IMG/VR virus record: IMGVR_UViG_3300025701_001373
Span: 1 to 52,641 of that record
Strand: one strand, 5' to 3'
Origin: a virus
Length of the DNA stretch: 52,641 bases
Part shown: piece by piece, positions 611-7,419 of the stretch
Numbering within the stretch: the stretch's first letter is position 1
Layout: each line of letters starts with the position of its first letter
Program-made: the position numbers and the translations under genes
The notes under the pieces: generated by a model
What the model was told of the DNA's origin: nothing
The model's input: the letters and a program-made list of their open reading frames with translations, nothing else
Database searches by the model: none

Positions 611-1762
611 ATGAAGAAGTATTTAGTATCAGTATTAGGGTTAGTTTTACTAGTAGGATGTGAAAAGACTACTATAGAAGAAGAGATAACACACATAGTT
701 GAAACACCAGAAGCGATTACTGACTACAATGTAGCGTCCTACTATTTAGATAAACCACTCAACCTTGTAGACTATAAGGACGAAGACAAACATTCTAATC
801 CTTTAGATATCACAGTGGTTGATTATAACTTAGACGGTTATGACGATGTAGTAGAATCAAATTCACATTATGGAGAAACCTACAGAACTAAGTTTAAATT
901 CTACCTCGGTCAACCAGACGGGACGTTAAAAGAAGACCAAACTAATTCAAATAAGTTTGAAGGTTTAGTACATGCCAGAAAAGGTATTGTAGGAGATTTC
1001 AACAAAGACGGGAAGCCGGATCTATTTTTTGTAGGACATGGCTACGATAAACCTCCTTACCCAGGGGAGTACCCTGTATTATTTCTTAGCACGGAAAATT
1101 ATGAATTCACTTCTTTATACTTTACGGAGTTAGTTGATTTTTTCCATACTGCTGCCTCAGGAGATTTAGATAATGACGGAGATTTAGATATTATACTTGA
1201 TGGGTTTAATACTTTCATACTGGAAAATGACGGTAAAGGCGGTTTTAGTAGTACCTCACTAAAAGATTCACAATTATTTACAGAAGGTGTAGACAGGTAC
1301 TTTGAAAATAAATTTACATTAGAGTTATACGATTTAGATAATGACGGGTACTTAGATATTATTTTAGGAGGTCATGAATTTGAAGGTACTAAGGAACCTA
1401 ATGTTATTCTTTATAACTCACCAACTGGGTTCACCGGCCGATATACTTTTATAGATACAGTTATAGACTACAAAGTAACTATTGATATAGATTTTTACGA
1501 TTTTGACAATGACGGAAAATCAGAGTTAATACTAAACCGGACGGGAAGCACAAATTTCTACACAGGATCTTATATACAGGTTGTTAACATAGAAGGTATA
1601 GATATTACTAAAGAGGTGTTTTTAGACACTTCTTATAAAAATATAGCTGGAGATCAATGGATAGCTTGGTTAATAGTCTACGGGAACACCTTAATTCTTA
1701 ATGACCTTTACTCAGATAAAAGCTGGGCTATAACAGATAAAGGTATACAGTTAAGTAATTAG
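611..1762 (+). CDS. Lipoprotein with five VCBS/FG-GAP-type repeats (beta-propeller-like)
   Basis: Residues 1-17 form a type II signal peptide with lipobox LVGC; Cys17 would be acylated, so the mature protein should be anchored in the host envelope. Five calcium-loop motifs of the FG-GAP/VCBS type (D-x-N/D-x-D-G pattern) begin at about residues 71, 129, 185, 241 and 297, a period of 56-58 residues that fits blades of an integrin-like beta-propeller. It has its own promoter at 557-590, and the SGNH gene starts 4 nt after its stop. Such lipoproteins are common in Bacteroidota but unusual in a T4-like phage. Receptor masking or superinfection exclusion is a possible role (inference). The lipoprotein and repeat calls are firm; the function is unknown. 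Confidence 0.85.
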   Translation: MKKYLVSVLGLVLLVGCEKTTIEEEITHIVETPEAITDYNVASYYLDKPLNLVDYKDEDKHSNPLDITVVDYNLDGYDDVVESNSHYGETYRTKFKFYLGQPDGTLKEDQTNSNKFEGLVHARKGIVGDFNKDGKPDLFFVGHGYDKPPYPGEYPVLFLSTENYEFTSLYFTELVDFFHTAASGDLDNDGDLDIILDGFNTFILENDGKGGFSSTSLKDSQLFTEGVDRYFENKFTLELYDLDNDGYLDIILGGHEFEGTKEPNVILYNSPTGFTGRYTFIDTVIDYKVTIDIDFYDFDNDGKSELILNRTGSTNFYTGSYIQVVNIEGIDITKEVFLDTSYKNIAGDQWIAWLIVYGNTLILNDLYSDKSWAITDKGIQLSN

Positions 1763-1766
1763 ATTT

Positions 1767-2570
1767 ATGTACGATATACAAAGAGAACTCAACAAGTACT
1801 TTAGTAAAGAAGTACACCATAGAACATTAGATAAATACTGGTATGGAGTAGATTCTAAAAAGAACTTTGATAGACAGGTTAAGACTCAATATAGTGAACT
1901 AAAAGAATATATAACAATACCAATAACTTATACTTGGAACAGAGATAAATTTAGATCAAACTTTGAATTCACGCCAAATAAAGATTTAAAGGTTGATATA
2001 TACTTAGGATGTTCTCACACTATGGGTACAGGACACTATTGGGAAAATACCTGGCCTTACCATGTATCAAAATATACCGGTAATGAAATAGTCAATTTAG
2101 GTGTAGGAGGGAAAGGAATAGAGTTATCATTTATAAACCTAGCTAAGTACATAAAATACTTCAATGTTCAAAACATCTTTCACTTCCAGCCAATATACGC
2201 TAGGTACAATTTTCCTTACAAAGGAGAAATAGGAAGCGTATTAGTACAGAATGTAGATTTAAATAACGGAGAAGAGGATTACGTACCTTGGCGAAAAAAG
2301 TACATAAAAGAAGAATTACTAAACGATGACTATATTGTATATAATCACTATAAACATACATTAAGTATACAAGGCTTATGTAATACGTACAGTATACCGT
2401 ATTACCATATGTATAAACTGCCCGATACAAGAGATGATAAAAGTACGCTAAAGGCAAGGGACTTAGTACACTATAACTCTACACAATTGAAAGCCATTGC
2501 TAACGAGTTTTTATCTAAGATGAACACTACAAATGGGTACAATCAAATACTAGATGATCTAAAATGGTAA
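1767..2570 (+). CDS. SGNH/GDSL-like hydrolase
   Basis: 267 aa. After a beta strand (KVDIYLG), residues 81-89 read GCSHTMGTG, a variant of the SGNH block I, with Ser83 as the candidate nucleophile. A glycine block follows (NLGVGGKG, about 110-117), and RDLVHYN near 231-237 supplies a D-x-x-H pair (Asp232, His235) typical of block V. SGNH enzymes are mostly esterases or deacetylases, often acting on glycans; the substrate here is unknown. No signal peptide is seen. The gene overlaps the following oxygenase by 7 nt. Two further SGNH proteins lie at 22977-23600 and 23944-24747, one of them also beside oxygenase genes. Confidence 0.7.
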   Translation: MYDIQRELNKYFSKEVHHRTLDKYWYGVDSKKNFDRQVKTQYSELKEYITIPITYTWNRDKFRSNFEFTPNKDLKVDIYLGCSHTMGTGHYWENTWPYHVSKYTGNEIVNLGVGGKGIELSFINLAKYIKYFNVQNIFHFQPIYARYNFPYKGEIGSVLVQNVDLNNGEEDYVPWRKKYIKEELLNDDYIVYNHYKHTLSIQGLCNTYSIPYYHMYKLPDTRDDKSTLKARDLVHYNSTQLKAIANEFLSKMNTTNGYNQILDDLKW

Positions 2571-3022
2571 ATATACATAAAAACTTCCTTACAGAGAGTG
2601 AATGTACAGCCCTTCTTAAAGTGGCTATAGATAAATTTGAAATTGATAGACGTACTTATTCTGGCTGGAGCTGTAGAGTTAATAGAAGTTTAGAGTTTGA
2701 GAATAGAATTAAGAATATACTAACCAATATATCCCCATATGAATCTTTTCATATTAGTTGGATAAATTTAACTGAATACAAACAAGGAAGTTCATTAGAA
2801 CTCCATAAAGACGAAAGGAGTAATTTTACTTTTACTATACCGTTAACAAGTAAGTACCAAGGAGGAGATTTTCTAATAGAAGGTAGTATATATAAGTTAA
2901 ATTTAGGTGACTGTATAGCGTTTACTGGAGGAGAATTAGAACACGGAGTTACAGAAGTTAGAGATGGATATAGAGCATCTCTTAATATATGGATAAAACA
3001 AGGAAATAAAAAAGTGATATGA
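2564..3022 (+). CDS. 2OG-Fe(II) oxygenase, prolyl-4-hydroxylase-like (paralog 1)
   Basis: 152 aa, essentially only the catalytic double-stranded beta-helix. The iron facial triad is visible as His81-x-Asp83 and His127; Arg137, ten residues after the distal His, is placed to bind the 2-oxoglutarate C5 carboxylate. The spacing and the YQGGDFLIEG strand match the P4H-like subfamily (2OG-FeII_Oxy_3/4 type). Enzymes of this fold hydroxylate substrates, often proline, using O2 and 2OG. It is coupled on both sides by short overlaps (SGNH gene before, cytidylyltransferase after). The C-terminal residue is Ile, as in all seven paralogs here. The substrate is unknown. Confidence 0.88.
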   Translation: MVNIHKNFLTESECTALLKVAIDKFEIDRRTYSGWSCRVNRSLEFENRIKNILTNISPYESFHISWINLTEYKQGSSLELHKDERSNFTFTIPLTSKYQGGDFLIEGSIYKLNLGDCIAFTGGELEHGVTEVRDGYRASLNIWIKQGNKKVI

Positions 3023-3432
3023 ACTCGGAAAAATATACAAAAGGAGTAATAGCAGGTAACTTTGATGTAATGCATCCAGGCTATATTAAAATGTTTAAAG
3101 AAGCTGCTGCCAATTGTGACTGTCTTGTAGTCTTACTACACACAGACCCTTCTATTGAACGTCCTCATAAACTTAAACCTATCCTGTCAGTTGATGAACG
3201 AAGAGAGATGTTGTTTGAACTTAAATCTATATGTGACATAATTACATACACGTACGAAGAACAGCTCTTAGACTTATTAAAACTAGGGGAGTTTAATGTA
3301 AGATTTCTTGGAGATGATTACAAAGGTAAACCTTTTACTGGAGACGTTTTGAATATACCTATTTATTATTTGAATAGAGATCACGGATGGTCTACGACTA
3401 AGTTCAAAAGGATGATTGCAAAAACAGTATGA
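3019..3432 (+). CDS. Cytidylyltransferase-like nucleotidyltransferase (TagD/PCT family)
   Basis: 137 aa, the length of glycerol-3-phosphate cytidylyltransferases. Residues 13-22 (GNFDVMHPGY) correspond to the GxFDxxHxGH nucleotide-binding signature, with the second His replaced by Tyr22. SVDERREML matches the helix after the substrate loop, RFLGDDYKG the family RxxGxDY-type motif, and WSTTKFKRMI the C-terminal STT-x-x-x-R motif. Such enzymes activate a sugar or alditol phosphate with CTP. The Tyr substitution may lower or change activity. It overlaps both flanking oxygenase genes by 4 nt, so a shared modification pathway is likely (inference). Confidence 0.8.
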   Translation: MNSEKYTKGVIAGNFDVMHPGYIKMFKEAAANCDCLVVLLHTDPSIERPHKLKPILSVDERREMLFELKSICDIITYTYEEQLLDLLKLGEFNVRFLGDDYKGKPFTGDVLNIPIYYLNRDHGWSTTKFKRMIAKTV

Positions 3433-3950
3433 TAACTCAAAAGAAAATTTTTACTGTAGAAGAGTGTCGGTACATACTAAATCAAATATATACCCAACCT
3501 CTAAAATCTCCCCATACTACATCTTTGCAAGAAAGTTACCGATTTAAAGGAGCTAATATAAAATACTTAAATGTTAATATCTACAATCCCGATTACAGTA
3601 AAATATTAACTCTATTAGAAGATAGGTTGAGAGAATTTGGAGTAGTAAAAATTCCACCTACTATAGATTTATTAGAATACACTGTAGGTAGTTCCCAAAA
3701 GGAACATAGAGATGATTACCGTTCAGTTAAGAGAGGGAGATCTATATCTATCATGTTATCAGAAGAGGAGGACTACGAAGGAGGTAATTTAATTATAGAG
3801 GATTCAATAGCGTCCAAAGAGATAGGGACTTTAATATTCTTCCCTTCTGATAAACTCCATTCAGTATCTAAAGTTACTTCTGGTAAACGATTAGTCTTAG
3901 TCATGTTTCTTAGGCAAGAAAATTTACATATTAAAAGTGGATTAATTTAA
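3429..3950 (+). CDS. 2OG-Fe(II) oxygenase, prolyl-4-hydroxylase-like (paralog 2)
   Basis: 173 aa. The N-terminal half (FTVEECRYILNQI) is the helical element common to P4H-like proteins. The catalytic half carries His93-x-Asp95, His144 and Arg154, the Fe(II) and 2OG ligands in the expected spacing, with the YEGGNLIIED strand between. Last gene of the operon begun at 1767; its ATG overlaps the preceding stop (ATGA). It ends in Ile. Closest in style to paralogs 3, 4 and 5. Confidence 0.88.
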   Translation: MITQKKIFTVEECRYILNQIYTQPLKSPHTTSLQESYRFKGANIKYLNVNIYNPDYSKILTLLEDRLREFGVVKIPPTIDLLEYTVGSSQKEHRDDYRSVKRGRSISIMLSEEEDYEGGNLIIEDSIASKEIGTLIFFPSDKLHSVSKVTSGKRLVLVMFLRQENLHIKSGLI

Positions 3951-3978: not shown

Positions 3979-3993
3979 TATATTTATATTAAA
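3979..3993 (+). promoter_or_regulatory. Candidate late promoter, TATTTATANTAAA type
   Basis: TATATTTATATTAAA at 3979-3993, identical over 15 nt to the site at 38789-38803 upstream of a tail gene. It lies 22 nt before the ATG of the Hint-domain gene. An early-type -7 hexamer (TATATT at 3961) is also present but its -33 TTG is degenerate (TGG). The assignment as a late promoter is inferred from recurrence upstream of structural genes. Confidence 0.4.
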
Positions 3994-4015: not shown

Positions 4016-6220
4016 ATGAAAGGAACCCTTTTTTCAACAGATTTTGTAAAAGACTCTAACGGAAACCTGAGATTGCTTGAAATCAATACAGATACTGCTA
4101 TTGTTACTTCAGCAGTCAACCAGTTAGACTTTACAGGATTCAAATCAGTACTAGAAAGTAATTCTATTACTAAAGTAAAGACAATTCACAAACTATATCA
4201 AGAAGATATTGTAGATGCATTAAAAGCATATATTGGTGCTAATGTTTCTTCAGTAGTTTCTTTTGAAAGTATTGTGGAGGATAGTAACACTATTTACCCA
4301 ACATCTGTTGAAGACGCAGATGATACATTTATCTTAAGATTAGCTTACGATGAATCAGCATTGTTAGACAGTGAGTATGCCAAAAACACATTCAACATCC
4401 TCCGACTTTTCAAAGATAATAACCTACTATCCAACACAGTAGGATATTACTACAAAGGTATAAATGGAGTAGACGACAACCTAGACAGAACATTCAATGT
4501 AGAAAATGCTCCTGATATACTAACTAAAAACTTGACTACAACTTTAGGAGAACCAATCGAATTTTTTAAAATTGGCCAACCTCAATTGGATGATGAAAGC
4601 AGATTTGGATCAATGCTTAATTCTATAGATGAAGGTAAAGTTGTCATGAACTTCTATAACGACCCTAGCGCTTCTAAAGTAGAATCATTTAGATCAATGC
4701 ATATAATTTTCGGAAGCAGTTTAGATATTATTAGCTTAGGAGGATTTAAATCTACCGCTATATTAGAAAAACCATCCAGTTTACAAAATTTCGATGGAGA
4801 AATTTTAACTAAAGTAGATTTAAAACACTACCATGAATTAACTACAACTCTTCCAAGATTTGGAGTAGGTTCAAACTACGGAGGTATCTTTGAAGAAGAG
4901 AGTATTGTAAAAGCAGATGGTACATTAGTTTCTATTAAAGAAGCAACAGTAGGAGATTCTTTTAAATCGTATTTTATTTCTGGCTCTCCTGATACAGATA
5001 TTGAATCAGAATACCTAGCTTGGACTTTTCCAGGATCTGAATTACCAAGTGGTTCATACGCTACGACTTCTACTTTAATTAATAACCTTGAAGTAGATTT
5101 ATTTTACAATATGATCTTCCATGTAACTTTAGAAGATGGAAGCGATTTCAGAGCAACAGGAAACTCTCATGTTCTTGCATATTCTATAGAAGAAGATTTA
5201 CTAAAGTATGTTTCAGTTAACTACTTACATGCTACCAAACATAAATTAGTCTCAGCAGGTAGTGGACTAGTAAATATTACAGGAGTAGTTTGCGAAATAC
5301 TTGACGGTTCATATTCATCTCATATTCTAGATATGGAGACTGCAGATACATTCTTTATCGGCGACGGACAATTAAGTATAAAAATTGTTGCACACAACTG
5401 CTTCCCAGCTGGTACTAAAATTACCATGGCAGACGGATCAGTAAAGAATATTGAAGACGTTAAAGCAGGTGACAAACTTTTAACAATCAACGAAGAAACT
5501 CAAGAGCAATCTGAAGGTAGAGTTGGAGATGTATTAGTTAAGAAAGATAGATTATTATTTGAATTCAAATTAGAAGACGGAGGAGTAATTAAATCTACTT
5601 CACACCATAAGTATTTTGTAAAAGAAAAATCTTGGTTAGCAGCTCAAGACATTCAAGTTGGAGATGTATTAGTTAGATCAAACGGAGACGATGTTAAAGT
5701 TGAATCAATTGAACAGCACGAAGGTGAGTTTGAGGTATTCCATATCATCGATGTAAAAGATAACCATACGTACTATGCAGAAGATGTTTTAGTTCACAAC
5801 TACAAAAGATGTTTCATTGCAGGAACTGAAATTACTTTAGCTAACGGAGACGTTAAGAATATCGAAGATGTAGCAGTAGGAGAAGAAGTTCTTACTTACA
5901 GTGAAGATAAAAAAGTAACAGAACAAGGAGTAGTAGGTGACTTAAAGAAACATGAAGTTGATTCTGTAATTAGGTTAACTTTAGATAATGAAAATGTAAT
6001 TGTAACAACAGCAGAACATCCTTTCTACGTAGTAGAAAAAGGTTGGGTTAAAGCTGGAGAATTACAACCATTAGATGTTTGTTTAAAAGAAGACGGAAAA
6101 GAATCTTTAATCTCTACTGTAGAAGTATTAGAAGAGAAACATGAAGTATTTAACCTACTTAGCGTTTCAGGAAACCATAACTTCTTTGCTAACGGAATAT
6201 TAGTTCACAATAAAAAATAA
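4016..6220 (+). CDS. Large protein ending in three tandem Hint (intein-like) domains
   Basis: 734 aa. Residues 1-290 are unrecognised; GNLRLLEINTDT (16-27) faintly recalls the metal-binding strand of ATP-grasp enzymes (weak). Three Hint modules follow. Module 1 (about 292-461) has Glu/Ser where the first Cys should be but ends in His460-Asn461. Module 2 runs from Cys462 to His594-Asn595. Module 3 runs from Cys599 to His731-Asn732. The residue after Asn461 is Cys462, the residue after Asn595 is Tyr596, and only KK follows Asn732. This pattern resembles bacterial intein-like (BIL) domains, which cleave at their ends instead of splicing cleanly. No endonuclease insert is seen. It stands alone between oxygenase operons with a possible late promoter, so a self-processing virion protein is plausible (inference). 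Confidence 0.85.
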   Translation: MKGTLFSTDFVKDSNGNLRLLEINTDTAIVTSAVNQLDFTGFKSVLESNSITKVKTIHKLYQEDIVDALKAYIGANVSSVVSFESIVEDSNTIYPTSVEDADDTFILRLAYDESALLDSEYAKNTFNILRLFKDNNLLSNTVGYYYKGINGVDDNLDRTFNVENAPDILTKNLTTTLGEPIEFFKIGQPQLDDESRFGSMLNSIDEGKVVMNFYNDPSASKVESFRSMHIIFGSSLDIISLGGFKSTAILEKPSSLQNFDGEILTKVDLKHYHELTTTLPRFGVGSNYGGIFEEESIVKADGTLVSIKEATVGDSFKSYFISGSPDTDIESEYLAWTFPGSELPSGSYATTSTLINNLEVDLFYNMIFHVTLEDGSDFRATGNSHVLAYSIEEDLLKYVSVNYLHATKHKLVSAGSGLVNITGVVCEILDGSYSSHILDMETADTFFIGDGQLSIKIVAHNCFPAGTKITMADGSVKNIEDVKAGDKLLTINEETQEQSEGRVGDVLVKKDRLLFEFKLEDGGVIKSTSHHKYFVKEKSWLAAQDIQVGDVLVRSNGDDVKVESIEQHEGEFEVFHIIDVKDNHTYYAEDVLVHNYKRCFIAGTEITLANGDVKNIEDVAVGEEVLTYSEDKKVTEQGVVGDLKKHEVDSVIRLTLDNENVIVTTAEHPFYVVEKGWVKAGELQPLDVCLKEDGKESLISTVEVLEEKHEVFNLLSVSGNHNFFANGILVHNKK

Positions 6221-6226
6221 ATAATT

Positions 6227-6367
6227 ATGCCAGTAGTATATAAATCGTTTGATTATCAAACAGAAGCAAGAGATAAAGCTGTAGAAGCAGTAGACAGTAC
6301 AACTAAACAAGAAATGGATAGTATTGTTTCTAGCTTTGTAAATTTATTTAAAGCTAAACACTTATAA
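6227..6367 (+). CDS. Small protein, 46 aa
   Basis: ATG 6 nt after the Hint gene stop, with a TAA at 6365-6367. The product is a charged, probably helical peptide (DYQTEARDKAVEAVDSTTKQ). The position suggests co-transcription with the Hint protein. No family is recognised. Confidence 0.55.
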   Translation: MPVVYKSFDYQTEARDKAVEAVDSTTKQEMDSIVSSFVNLFKAKHL

Positions 6368-6385: not shown

Positions 6386-6913
6386 ATGGTTGTCGAAAAA
6401 ACGTTATTCTCCAAACAAGATTGTGAGTATATAAAATCATTTTACGATACCGCAATTGAGAAAAACGAAATAGGTTTTAAATTAAAATCAGACAAGTACC
6501 CACAAGGTATAGCAATAAAAGACGGTTCAGCAGTTTCTTGGAATGAAATCCAAAATGAGACGCTGGACCGTTTCTTATTAAGGAAGTTAAATAAGTTAGG
6601 TATAATCTCACTACCGTATTTAAAACTAATGAAGTACGGAGTAGGAAATGAAATGAAACCACACAGAGATTTTCAAGCTTACGATACCGATGTAATCTAC
6701 AGATCTACTACTATACAACTTTCTGACCCCGATGAATACAACGGAGGAGAGTTATATGTAGAAGGAGTTAAGGGAAGTAATCTACAAGGTACTGCGATTA
6801 TGTTTAACCCTAATCAGAAACATTGGGTCACTGAGATCACTAAAGGAGAGAGATGGGTCATTGTAGCATTCCTAGAGGAATCACACTTTAGTTATAGAAA
6901 AACAGTAATATGA
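6386..6913 (+). CDS. 2OG-Fe(II) oxygenase, prolyl-4-hydroxylase-like (paralog 3)
   Basis: 175 aa with the full P4H-like layout: an N-terminal helix (FSKQDCEYIKSFYD), then His93-x-Asp95, a YNGGELYVEG strand, distal His146 and Arg156. It forms a tandem pair with the next gene through an ATGA overlap. The protein ends RKTVI; the terminal Ile is shared by all paralogs. No promoter is recognised directly upstream. Confidence 0.88.
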   Translation: MVVEKTLFSKQDCEYIKSFYDTAIEKNEIGFKLKSDKYPQGIAIKDGSAVSWNEIQNETLDRFLLRKLNKLGIISLPYLKLMKYGVGNEMKPHRDFQAYDTDVIYRSTTIQLSDPDEYNGGELYVEGVKGSNLQGTAIMFNPNQKHWVTEITKGERWVIVAFLEESHFSYRKTVI

Positions 6914-7419
6914 TCGAACAAAAAGTTTTATTTTCACCTGAAGAATGTCATAAGATTAAAACTGAAAATTTAGTTATATACCCTCCTATTGAAGATAAAG
7001 AATGGTGGGCGTCTCATTCTGTTAATGACAAGTTTAAAAACAAGCAGGAGTATGAAATCAGCAACATAGACAGTAGAAAGTTTATACTGAGTAAGGTCAA
7101 AGAATTGGGTGTTAATAGTCTTCCCTACTATAAAGTAATACACTACACACAAGGAGGTTATTTTAATCCTCATATAGATGCTGGATGGAACAATCCTATA
7201 AGGAGGAAGACTATGTTAATACAGCTGTCCTCAGAGAATGAGTACCAAGGAGGGAATATGTACGTTAAAGACACTCTTTTTACTAAGCAGTTAGGAAACG
7301 TAATATTATTTGATTCAAATATTACTCATGAATTGAAGGTAGTTGAAAGCGGGGATAGATTTGTAATGGTCTGTTGGTTAGGTGCTGGTAATTTAGATAT
7401 AAAGAAGGATTTTATTTAA
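6910..7419 (+). CDS. 2OG-Fe(II) oxygenase, prolyl-4-hydroxylase-like (paralog 4)
   Basis: 169 aa. Iron ligands His88-x-Asp90 and His140; 2OG-binding Arg150; YQGGNMYVKD strand. The N-terminal LFSPEECHKIK matches the other paralogs. It clearly shares ancestry with the preceding gene but differs widely in sequence, so it is not a recent duplication. It ends KKDFI-stop (ATT TAA), not coupled to a downstream gene. Confidence 0.88.
   Translation: MIEQKVLFSPEECHKIKTENLVIYPPIEDKEWWASHSVNDKFKNKQEYEISNIDSRKFILSKVKELGVNSLPYYKVIHYTQGGYFNPHIDAGWNNPIRRKTMLIQLSSENEYQGGNMYVKDTLFTKQLGNVILFDSNITHELKVVESGDRFVMVCWLGAGNLDIKKDFI

What the first reader, a model, noticed from the sequence alone, without database searches (positions are those of the whole stretch)
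4016..6220. Three Hint (intein-like) domains in tandem at the end of one phage protein
Module ends are HN461|C462, HN595|Y596 and HN732|KK. The first module lacks the N-terminal Cys, the second and third have it. Module 1's +1 residue is the first Cys of module 2, so cleavage, branching or splicing of adjacent modules could compete. This fits bacterial intein-like domains, not a standard intein with a defined extein downstream. There is no homing endonuclease. The protein may release its N-terminal 290-460 residues, or form an ester or crosslink during virion assembly.
Basis: partly seen in the sequence, partly recalled or inferred. Interest (0 to 1): 0.72.

Follow-up and report, generated by a model that had tools for sequence, protein, structure and literature searches.

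The report
Phage ligase-like protein with self-cleaving tails
A marine phage makes a probable amide-bond-forming enzyme that carries a chain of intein-like domains which look able to cut themselves off its end, and dozens of related phages carry the same enzyme with zero to three such tails and always a tiny partner gene directly downstream.

Summary
ORF 4016-6220 (734 aa) ends in three Hint-fold domains. M2 (462-595) and M3 (599-732) are clear bacterial-intein-like (BIL) domains. M1 (291-461) matches no sequence profile, but its predicted structure is a Hint fold (VIA Z 19.4, 1.6 Å over 141 residues, against the BIL2 domain of Tetrahymena BUBL1).

The protein belongs to an undescribed family seen only in metagenomic phages: 77 distinct proteins, with no match in isolate phages or GTDB genomes by the searches run. 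The plan is an N-terminal ATP-grasp-like domain resembling peptide-spermidine ligases, then M1, then 0-3 canonical Hint modules. A 43-55 aa ORF follows in all but one locus, and that one ends inside the family gene.

In M1 the N-side chemistry is lost (no Cys1 or Ser1, no block-B His). Its C-side residues are almost the only conserved ones: Asp444 and Asn461 in 49/49 and His460 in 48/49 proteins under 70% identical.

Best reading: M2 and M3 cleave themselves off, M1 can cleave only at Asn461, and the product is an enzyme of about 461 aa. Six natural homologues end just after M1. A virion crosslink and the "M1 competes with M2 at Cys462" idea get little support. No step is shown biochemically.

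The parts
3981..3988 (+). TATTTATA promoter-like motif, 35 nt before the start codon
   Evidence: TATTTATA within 80 nt upstream in 36 of 45 family genes, against 0.9 of 45 random stretches and 34 of 583 other ORFs of the same loci; the same motif precedes 28032, 30410 and 38815 in the structural block
4016..6220 (+). 734-aa precursor: ATP-grasp-like domain plus three Hint-fold domains
4016..4885 (+). N-terminal ATP-grasp-like domain (residues 1-290), nearest to YgiC/YjfC and glutathione synthetase; D9, E22, N24, R108, D118, Y121, K171 conserved in all or all but one sequence
   Evidence: Foldseek 7uk6 3.8e-6, 7uk8 2.5e-5, 1m0t 5e-5; hhalign against GSP_synth proteins E 1e-4 aligning the D..E-x-N motif; conservation
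4886..5398 (+). M1, degenerate Hint domain (residues 291-461): no Cys1, no block-B TxxH His, D444/H460/N461 kept
5399..5800 (+). M2, canonical BIL/Hint domain (462-595): Cys462, T528-x-x-H531, D579/H584, H594-N595; +1 is Tyr
5801..5809 (+). 3-residue linker Tyr-Lys-Arg (596-598)
5810..6211 (+). M3, canonical BIL/Hint domain (599-732): Cys599, T665-x-x-H668, H731-N732
6212..6217 (+). Lys-Lys C-terminus; +1 Lys directly after the last His-Asn
   Evidence: 60 of 63 distinct family proteins whose last canonical module ends in His-Asn have Lys at +1 (51 end exactly HNK*); the other three have Arg
6227..6367 (+). 46-aa conserved downstream ORF (MPVVYKSFDYQ...NLFKAKHL)
   Evidence: HMM of the small ORF finds it in every family locus searched that holds the complete gene end, E 2e-21 to 2e-8, nearly always starting 1-33 nt after the family gene

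Best explanation
This is the precursor of a phage ATP-grasp-like (probably amide-ligase) enzyme with removable BIL domains at its C-terminus. M2 and M3 each keep the full set of Hint catalytic residues. Each should form a thioester at its Cys1 (462, 599) and cyclise its last Asn (595, 732); lacking a Cys/Ser/Thr at +1, they should mainly cleave rather than splice. M1 has lost the N-side machinery but keeps only the C-side residues, so it can at most cleave after Asn461. The end product is residues 1-461 (ligase-like domain plus M1), the length at which some homologues naturally stop. The likely partner or substrate is the 46-aa peptide encoded directly downstream. Shown by computation: domain architecture, folds, residue conservation, gene pairing, module turnover. 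Inferred: that cleavage happens, the order of steps, the enzymatic activity, and the role of the small ORF.
For: M2/M3 are BIL-type Hint domains under stronger purifying selection than the rest: window against L001 has similar fourfold-site identity everywhere (0.62-0.77) but 75% aa identity in the N-domain, 87% in M1, 96% in M2, 93% in M3. Of 171 M1 columns only G340, S352, D444, H460 and N461 are >=95% identical across 49 proteins under 70% identical, and three of these are the intein C-cleavage residues; position 291 is never Cys or Ser. Homologues carry 0, 1, 2 or 3 canonical modules after M1, so those are dispensable add-ons and ligase+M1 is the core. Modules move independently of the core: L082's module is 73% identical to L037's last one while their cores are 32% identical. 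N-domain: Foldseek to YjfC/YgiC and glutathione synthetase, hhalign E 1e-4, invariant D9/E22/N24/R108/K171. BIL domains lacking a +1 nucleophile mostly give cleaved products (PMC7664689; PMC7765530).
Against: No biochemical data. If removal of the tail were the only goal, M1's conserved HN in proteins with just 5-10 residues after it, and the conserved HN of the last module with only Lys after it, would be hard to explain by release alone; this favours a role for Asn cyclisation or the +1 Lys that the simple model does not explain. The ATP-grasp match is distant: Pfam GSP_synth is only 0.12 in 2 of 41 members, below its cutoff, and no Gly-rich ATP loop was recognised.
Confidence: 0.55

Rival explanations
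1. The terminal module is a transferase rather than a mere scissor: the Cys1 thioester is resolved by an amine, the conserved +1 Lys (or another amine, such as a polyamine or a lysine of the small ORF product), leaving the N-terminal part with an amide- or isopeptide-linked C-terminus, as Tetrahymena BIL2 does for a ubiquitin-like protein.
For: Lys at +1 of the last canonical HN module in 60 of 63 distinct family proteins, usually as the very last residue; Lys at +1 also in 14 of 26 distinct non-family phage Hint modules; the top structural match is BUBL1 BIL2, reported to make a Lys isopeptide bond without ATP (PMC8616854); the Clostridium BIL (2lwy), also a top match, is cited for ligation without a nucleophilic side chain (Aranko 2013, cited in PMC7664689; that 2lwy is the domain of that paper is from memory).
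Against: In the solved BIL2 construct the residue after the mutated Asn is Met, not Lys. Lys at +1 could be a neutral ancestral residue. The search that found the non-family modules used queries ending in Lys, a mild bias.
Confidence: 0.22
2. Ordinary protein splicing by inteins (class 1 for M2/M3, class 2 for M1 using Cys462 as +1).
For: M1 lacks Cys1 and in this clade is followed by Cys462, which resembles class 2; M2 and M3 keep all class 1 blocks.
Against: +1 residues are Tyr and Lys; no C-extein worth joining (2 residues); no endonuclease; the Cys directly after M1 is absent in most homologues; last-module +1 is Lys or Arg throughout.
Confidence: 0.06
3. The Hint domains are catalytically silent structural modules, or decaying leftovers of inteins.
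For: M1 has lost half its active site; the number of modules varies.
Against: M2/M3 keep every catalytic residue under strong purifying selection; Asn461 and Asp444 are invariant in 49 diverse proteins; decay would not spare exactly these.
Confidence: 0.1
4. A virion protein that cleaves or crosslinks during assembly.
For: A promoter-like TATTTATA element is shared with genes in the structural block; other metagenomic phages carry similar Hint modules inside large proteins.
Against: Enzyme-like N-domain; position among metabolic and modification genes in the window; no PHROG structural family matched.
Confidence: 0.07

Closest known systems
A-type bacterial intein-like (BIL) domains, e.g. Clostridium thermocellum BIL (PDB 2lwy)
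   Same: M2 and M3: Hint fold, Cys1, TxxH, C-terminal His-Asn, no Cys/Ser/Thr at +1, no endonuclease
   Different: In tandem at the extreme C-terminus of a ligase-like phage protein, with Lys as the final residue
BIL2 of the Tetrahymena BUBL1 polyubiquitin locus (PDB 6y75/6tmm)
   Same: Best structural match of M1 and best sequence match of M3; several Hint domains in one polyprotein
   Different: BUBL carries ubiquitin-like domains and intact BIL active sites; here M1 is half-dead and follows an ATP-grasp-like domain
Class 2 inteins (KlbA)
   Same: M1 lacks Cys1/Ser1; in this clade a Cys follows its Asn; fold match 2jmz Z 15.2
   Different: The +1 Cys is not conserved in the family and block-B His is lost
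YgiC/YjfC peptide-spermidine ligases / glutathionylspermidine synthetase (PF03738)
   Same: Fold of the N-domain, D...E-x-N-x-DT motif; isolate phages carry genuine PF03738-type genes
   Different: About 290 instead of 386 residues, below the Pfam cutoff, fused to Hint domains, paired with a micro-ORF

Membership tests
A-type BIL domain (M2, M3) | Hint fold with N-terminal Cys | tested here: met
   Pfam/PDB matches starting at C462 and C599; model of the full protein
A-type BIL domain (M2, M3) | Block B TxxH and C-terminal His-Asn | tested here: met
   T528SHH531, T665AEH668; HN595, HN732
A-type BIL domain (M2, M3) | no Cys/Ser/Thr at +1 | tested here: met
   Tyr596, Lys733; last-module +1 is Lys or Arg across the family
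A-type BIL domain (M2, M3) | N- and C-terminal autocleavage | not testable with these tools
   needs purified protein
Hint superfamily (M1) | Hint fold | tested here: met
   VIA Z 19.4, rmsd 1.6, 141 residues to 6y75
Hint superfamily, autoprocessing (M1) | N-terminal Cys/Ser nucleophile | tested here: not met
   Ile/Leu/Val/Phe/Met at 291 in 48 of 49 representatives, Thr in one
Class 2 intein (M1) | Cys/Ser/Thr directly after the terminal Asn | tested here: not met
   met in this clade only; most of 41 homologues have a linker after Asn
Class 3 intein (M1) | WCT motif with block F Cys | tested here: not met
   block F is (D/N)-x-E-x-x-D-(T/N)-(Y/F), no Cys
Homing intein | endonuclease domain and conserved host insertion site | tested here: not met
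   modules of 134 residues, no endonuclease match, no C-extein
PF03738 GSP_synth | score above the curated cutoff | tested here: not met
   no match in the window record; 2 of 41 members at E 0.12
ATP-grasp fold (N-domain) | ATP-grasp fold and Mg ligands D/E/N | tested here: inconclusive
   Foldseek matches to YjfC/YgiC and glutathione synthetase at 4e-6 to 2e-4, motif aligned, but no solo-domain model and no ATP loop identified

The most novel reading that the evidence does not exclude
A phage conjugation device: an ATP-grasp-like peptide-amine ligase whose own C-terminus is processed by tandem Lys+1 BIL domains, so that thioester chemistry without ATP and ligase chemistry with ATP act together on the small downstream peptide; and, more broadly, a class of phage Hint domains in which Lys at +1 replaces the Cys/Ser/Thr nucleophile.
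Probability: 0.15. Interest if true: 0.85.

Novelty: new variant of a known kind. Interest (0 to 1): 0.62.

Why it matters
It joins two protein-modifying chemistries (ATP-grasp amide ligation and Hint thioester/Asn cyclisation) in one gene, paired with a micro-ORF, in a family that appears only in uncultured phages. M1 is a natural example of a Hint domain trimmed to its C-cleavage half, and the family is a natural experiment in gain, loss and exchange of BIL modules. Lys at +1 in many phage Hint modules makes a non-canonical amine acceptor directly testable.

Tried and rejected
Sequence profiles for M1 alone: none at E<=10; one homologue reaches PT-HINT at 8.8e-4. N-domain in isolate phages: no match with the window, L017 or L076 versions; L074 gives one unconvincing match, E 0.6. 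GTDB genome contigs: pattern hits but no relative. PHROGs for the small ORF: nothing convincing. Small ORFs next to phage GSP-synthase genes (Acj9, phiPMW, Aes012, OC) do not resemble the family micro-ORF. T4-type late promoter TATAAATA on the coding strand: 0 of 45 family genes; the motif present is TATTTATA. 'Lys at +1 is unique to this family': rejected, it also occurs in 14 of 26 other phage Hint modules. 'Hint modules were recently transferred as a block between the window and L001': rejected, synonymous sites diverge about equally; it does hold for M3 of L001/L004 (100% nt identity). The VIA table listed only Hint structures, so it says nothing about the N-domain. Paper searches found no report of Hint plus ATP-grasp.

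Full report
Observation. M2 (462-595) and M3 (599-732) are unambiguous Hint domains by Pfam, NCBIfam and PDB sequence searches and are 38% identical to each other. M1 (291-461) has no profile match of its own. I therefore gathered homologues and predicted the structure.

Homologues. Only near-identical relatives were found at first (85%). Using conserved N-terminal motifs the family grew to 16 loci, 63 loci and, with later scans, 77 distinct proteins. None was found in GTDB genome contigs, and none convincingly in isolate phages, by the searches run. Contigs reach over 300 kb.

Architecture. Every complete member has an N-terminal domain of about 290 residues, then M1, then 0 (six proteins), 1, 2 or 3 canonical Hint modules. 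Seven members end differently, with no terminal His-Asn. The core is therefore N-domain plus M1, and canonical modules are add-ons. The add-ons are exchanged: several pairs share a terminal module at 63-88% identity while their cores are 31-40% identical; L001 and L004 share M3 at 100% nucleotide identity against 86% in the N-domain. In the window-L001 comparison synonymous sites diverge similarly throughout, but the Hint modules are far more conserved as protein, which argues that they are functional.

M1. AlphaFold2 on 41 sequences gave pLDDT 87.5. Residues 286-461 match Hint domains with VIA Z up to 19.4 at 1.6 Å over 141 residues, best to BIL2 of Tetrahymena BUBL1. In 49 proteins below 70% identity only five M1 columns are >=95% conserved: G340, S352, D444, H460, N461. 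D444 lies where block F has its His in M2 (H584), and H460-N461 are the block G pair; the first residue is Ile/Leu/Val/Phe/Met (one Thr), and the block-B His is lost in most. This is the pattern expected of a Hint domain selected only for C-terminal Asn cyclisation (inference). The residue after Asn461 is Cys in this clade and some others; elsewhere a linker intervenes, so the proposed competition at Cys462 is not a family trait.

N-domain. Foldseek places YjfC/YgiC and glutathione synthetases below the Hint hits (E 4e-6 to 2e-4). Profile-profile alignment with 12 GSP-synthetase-type proteins gives E 1e-4 and superposes the D9...E22-x-N24 motif. Invariant D9, E22, R108, D118, Y121 and K171 (N24 likewise apart from one undetermined residue) look like an active site. 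RefSeq names YgiC and YjfC peptide-spermidine ligases. Pfam's cutoff for GSP_synth is not reached, so I call it ATP-grasp-like, not a member.

Neighbourhood. A 43-55 aa ORF, consensus ..YK(T/K)...NF(I/F).YFKAKH(S/L), starts within tens of bases after the family gene in nearly all loci. An HMM of it finds it in every searched locus that holds the complete gene end. Thirty-eight of 48 loci also carry 2OG-Fe(II) oxygenase-type genes nearby, as does the window. A TATTTATA element lies 21-67 nt before the start codon in most members, and 36 of 45 have the exact motif within 80 nt, against 34 of 583 other ORFs of the same loci. In the window it also precedes genes of the structural block. The element looks like a promoter; late expression is inferred.

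Mechanism. M2 and M3 have complete Hint active sites but Tyr and Lys at +1. BIL domains without a +1 nucleophile mainly give cleaved products (PMC7664689; PMC7765530). I expect cleavage at 461|462, 595|596, 598|599 and 732|733, leaving residues 1-461, the size of the natural M1-only homologues. What this leaves unexplained is why the last module keeps His-Asn-Lys when only a Lys would be released: 60 of 63 distinct proteins have Lys there, the other three Arg. Lys at +1 also occurs in 14 of 26 distinct Hint modules from other metagenomic phage proteins. BIL2 is reported to form a lysine isopeptide bond (PMC8616854), so transfer to an amine is the main rival.

Verdict. It is a new variant of a known kind (BIL/Hint autoprocessing) on a new phage ligase-like family.

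Noticed in passing
window 6227-6367: 46-aa ORF directly downstream, strictly paired with the family gene in the homologous loci; a candidate substrate or partner peptide with a conserved C-terminal KH(S/L).
   Followed up: partly
window 2564-3022, 3429-3950, 6386-6913, 6910-7419: Four 2OG-Fe(II) oxygenase genes flank the finding; related genes occur near it in 38 of 48 homologous loci, with sulfotransferase-like and SET-like genes in 20 and 15 loci (labels of the last two from sequence inspection).
   Followed up: no
window 611-1762 and L001:3183-4415: FG-GAP-type repeat proteins, each starting with a lipoprotein-like signal; with the lack of Shine-Dalgarno sites this suggests a Bacteroidota host (inference).
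   Followed up: no
window TATTTATA motifs at 3981, 9111, 23915, 25480, 28009, 30399, 38791: Strand-biased promoter-like motif (12 on +, 3 on -) lying 11-35 nt before start codons, including genes of the baseplate/structural block.
   Followed up: partly
L114, L116, L118, L201, L206, L210, L227, L230, L242: Unrelated phage proteins with Hint modules followed by Lys at +1, one (L201) with two modules in tandem; a possible Lys+1 class of phage BIL domains.
   Followed up: partly
L072:6001-7788 and the ORF after it: Divergent member whose next ORF (125 aa) starts like a separate Hint domain, possibly a split arrangement.
   Followed up: no
L054, L063, L068, L086, L052: Last Hint module ends without His-Asn (SGLGDNELLN-type tail), resembling B-type BIL domains.
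   Followed up: no
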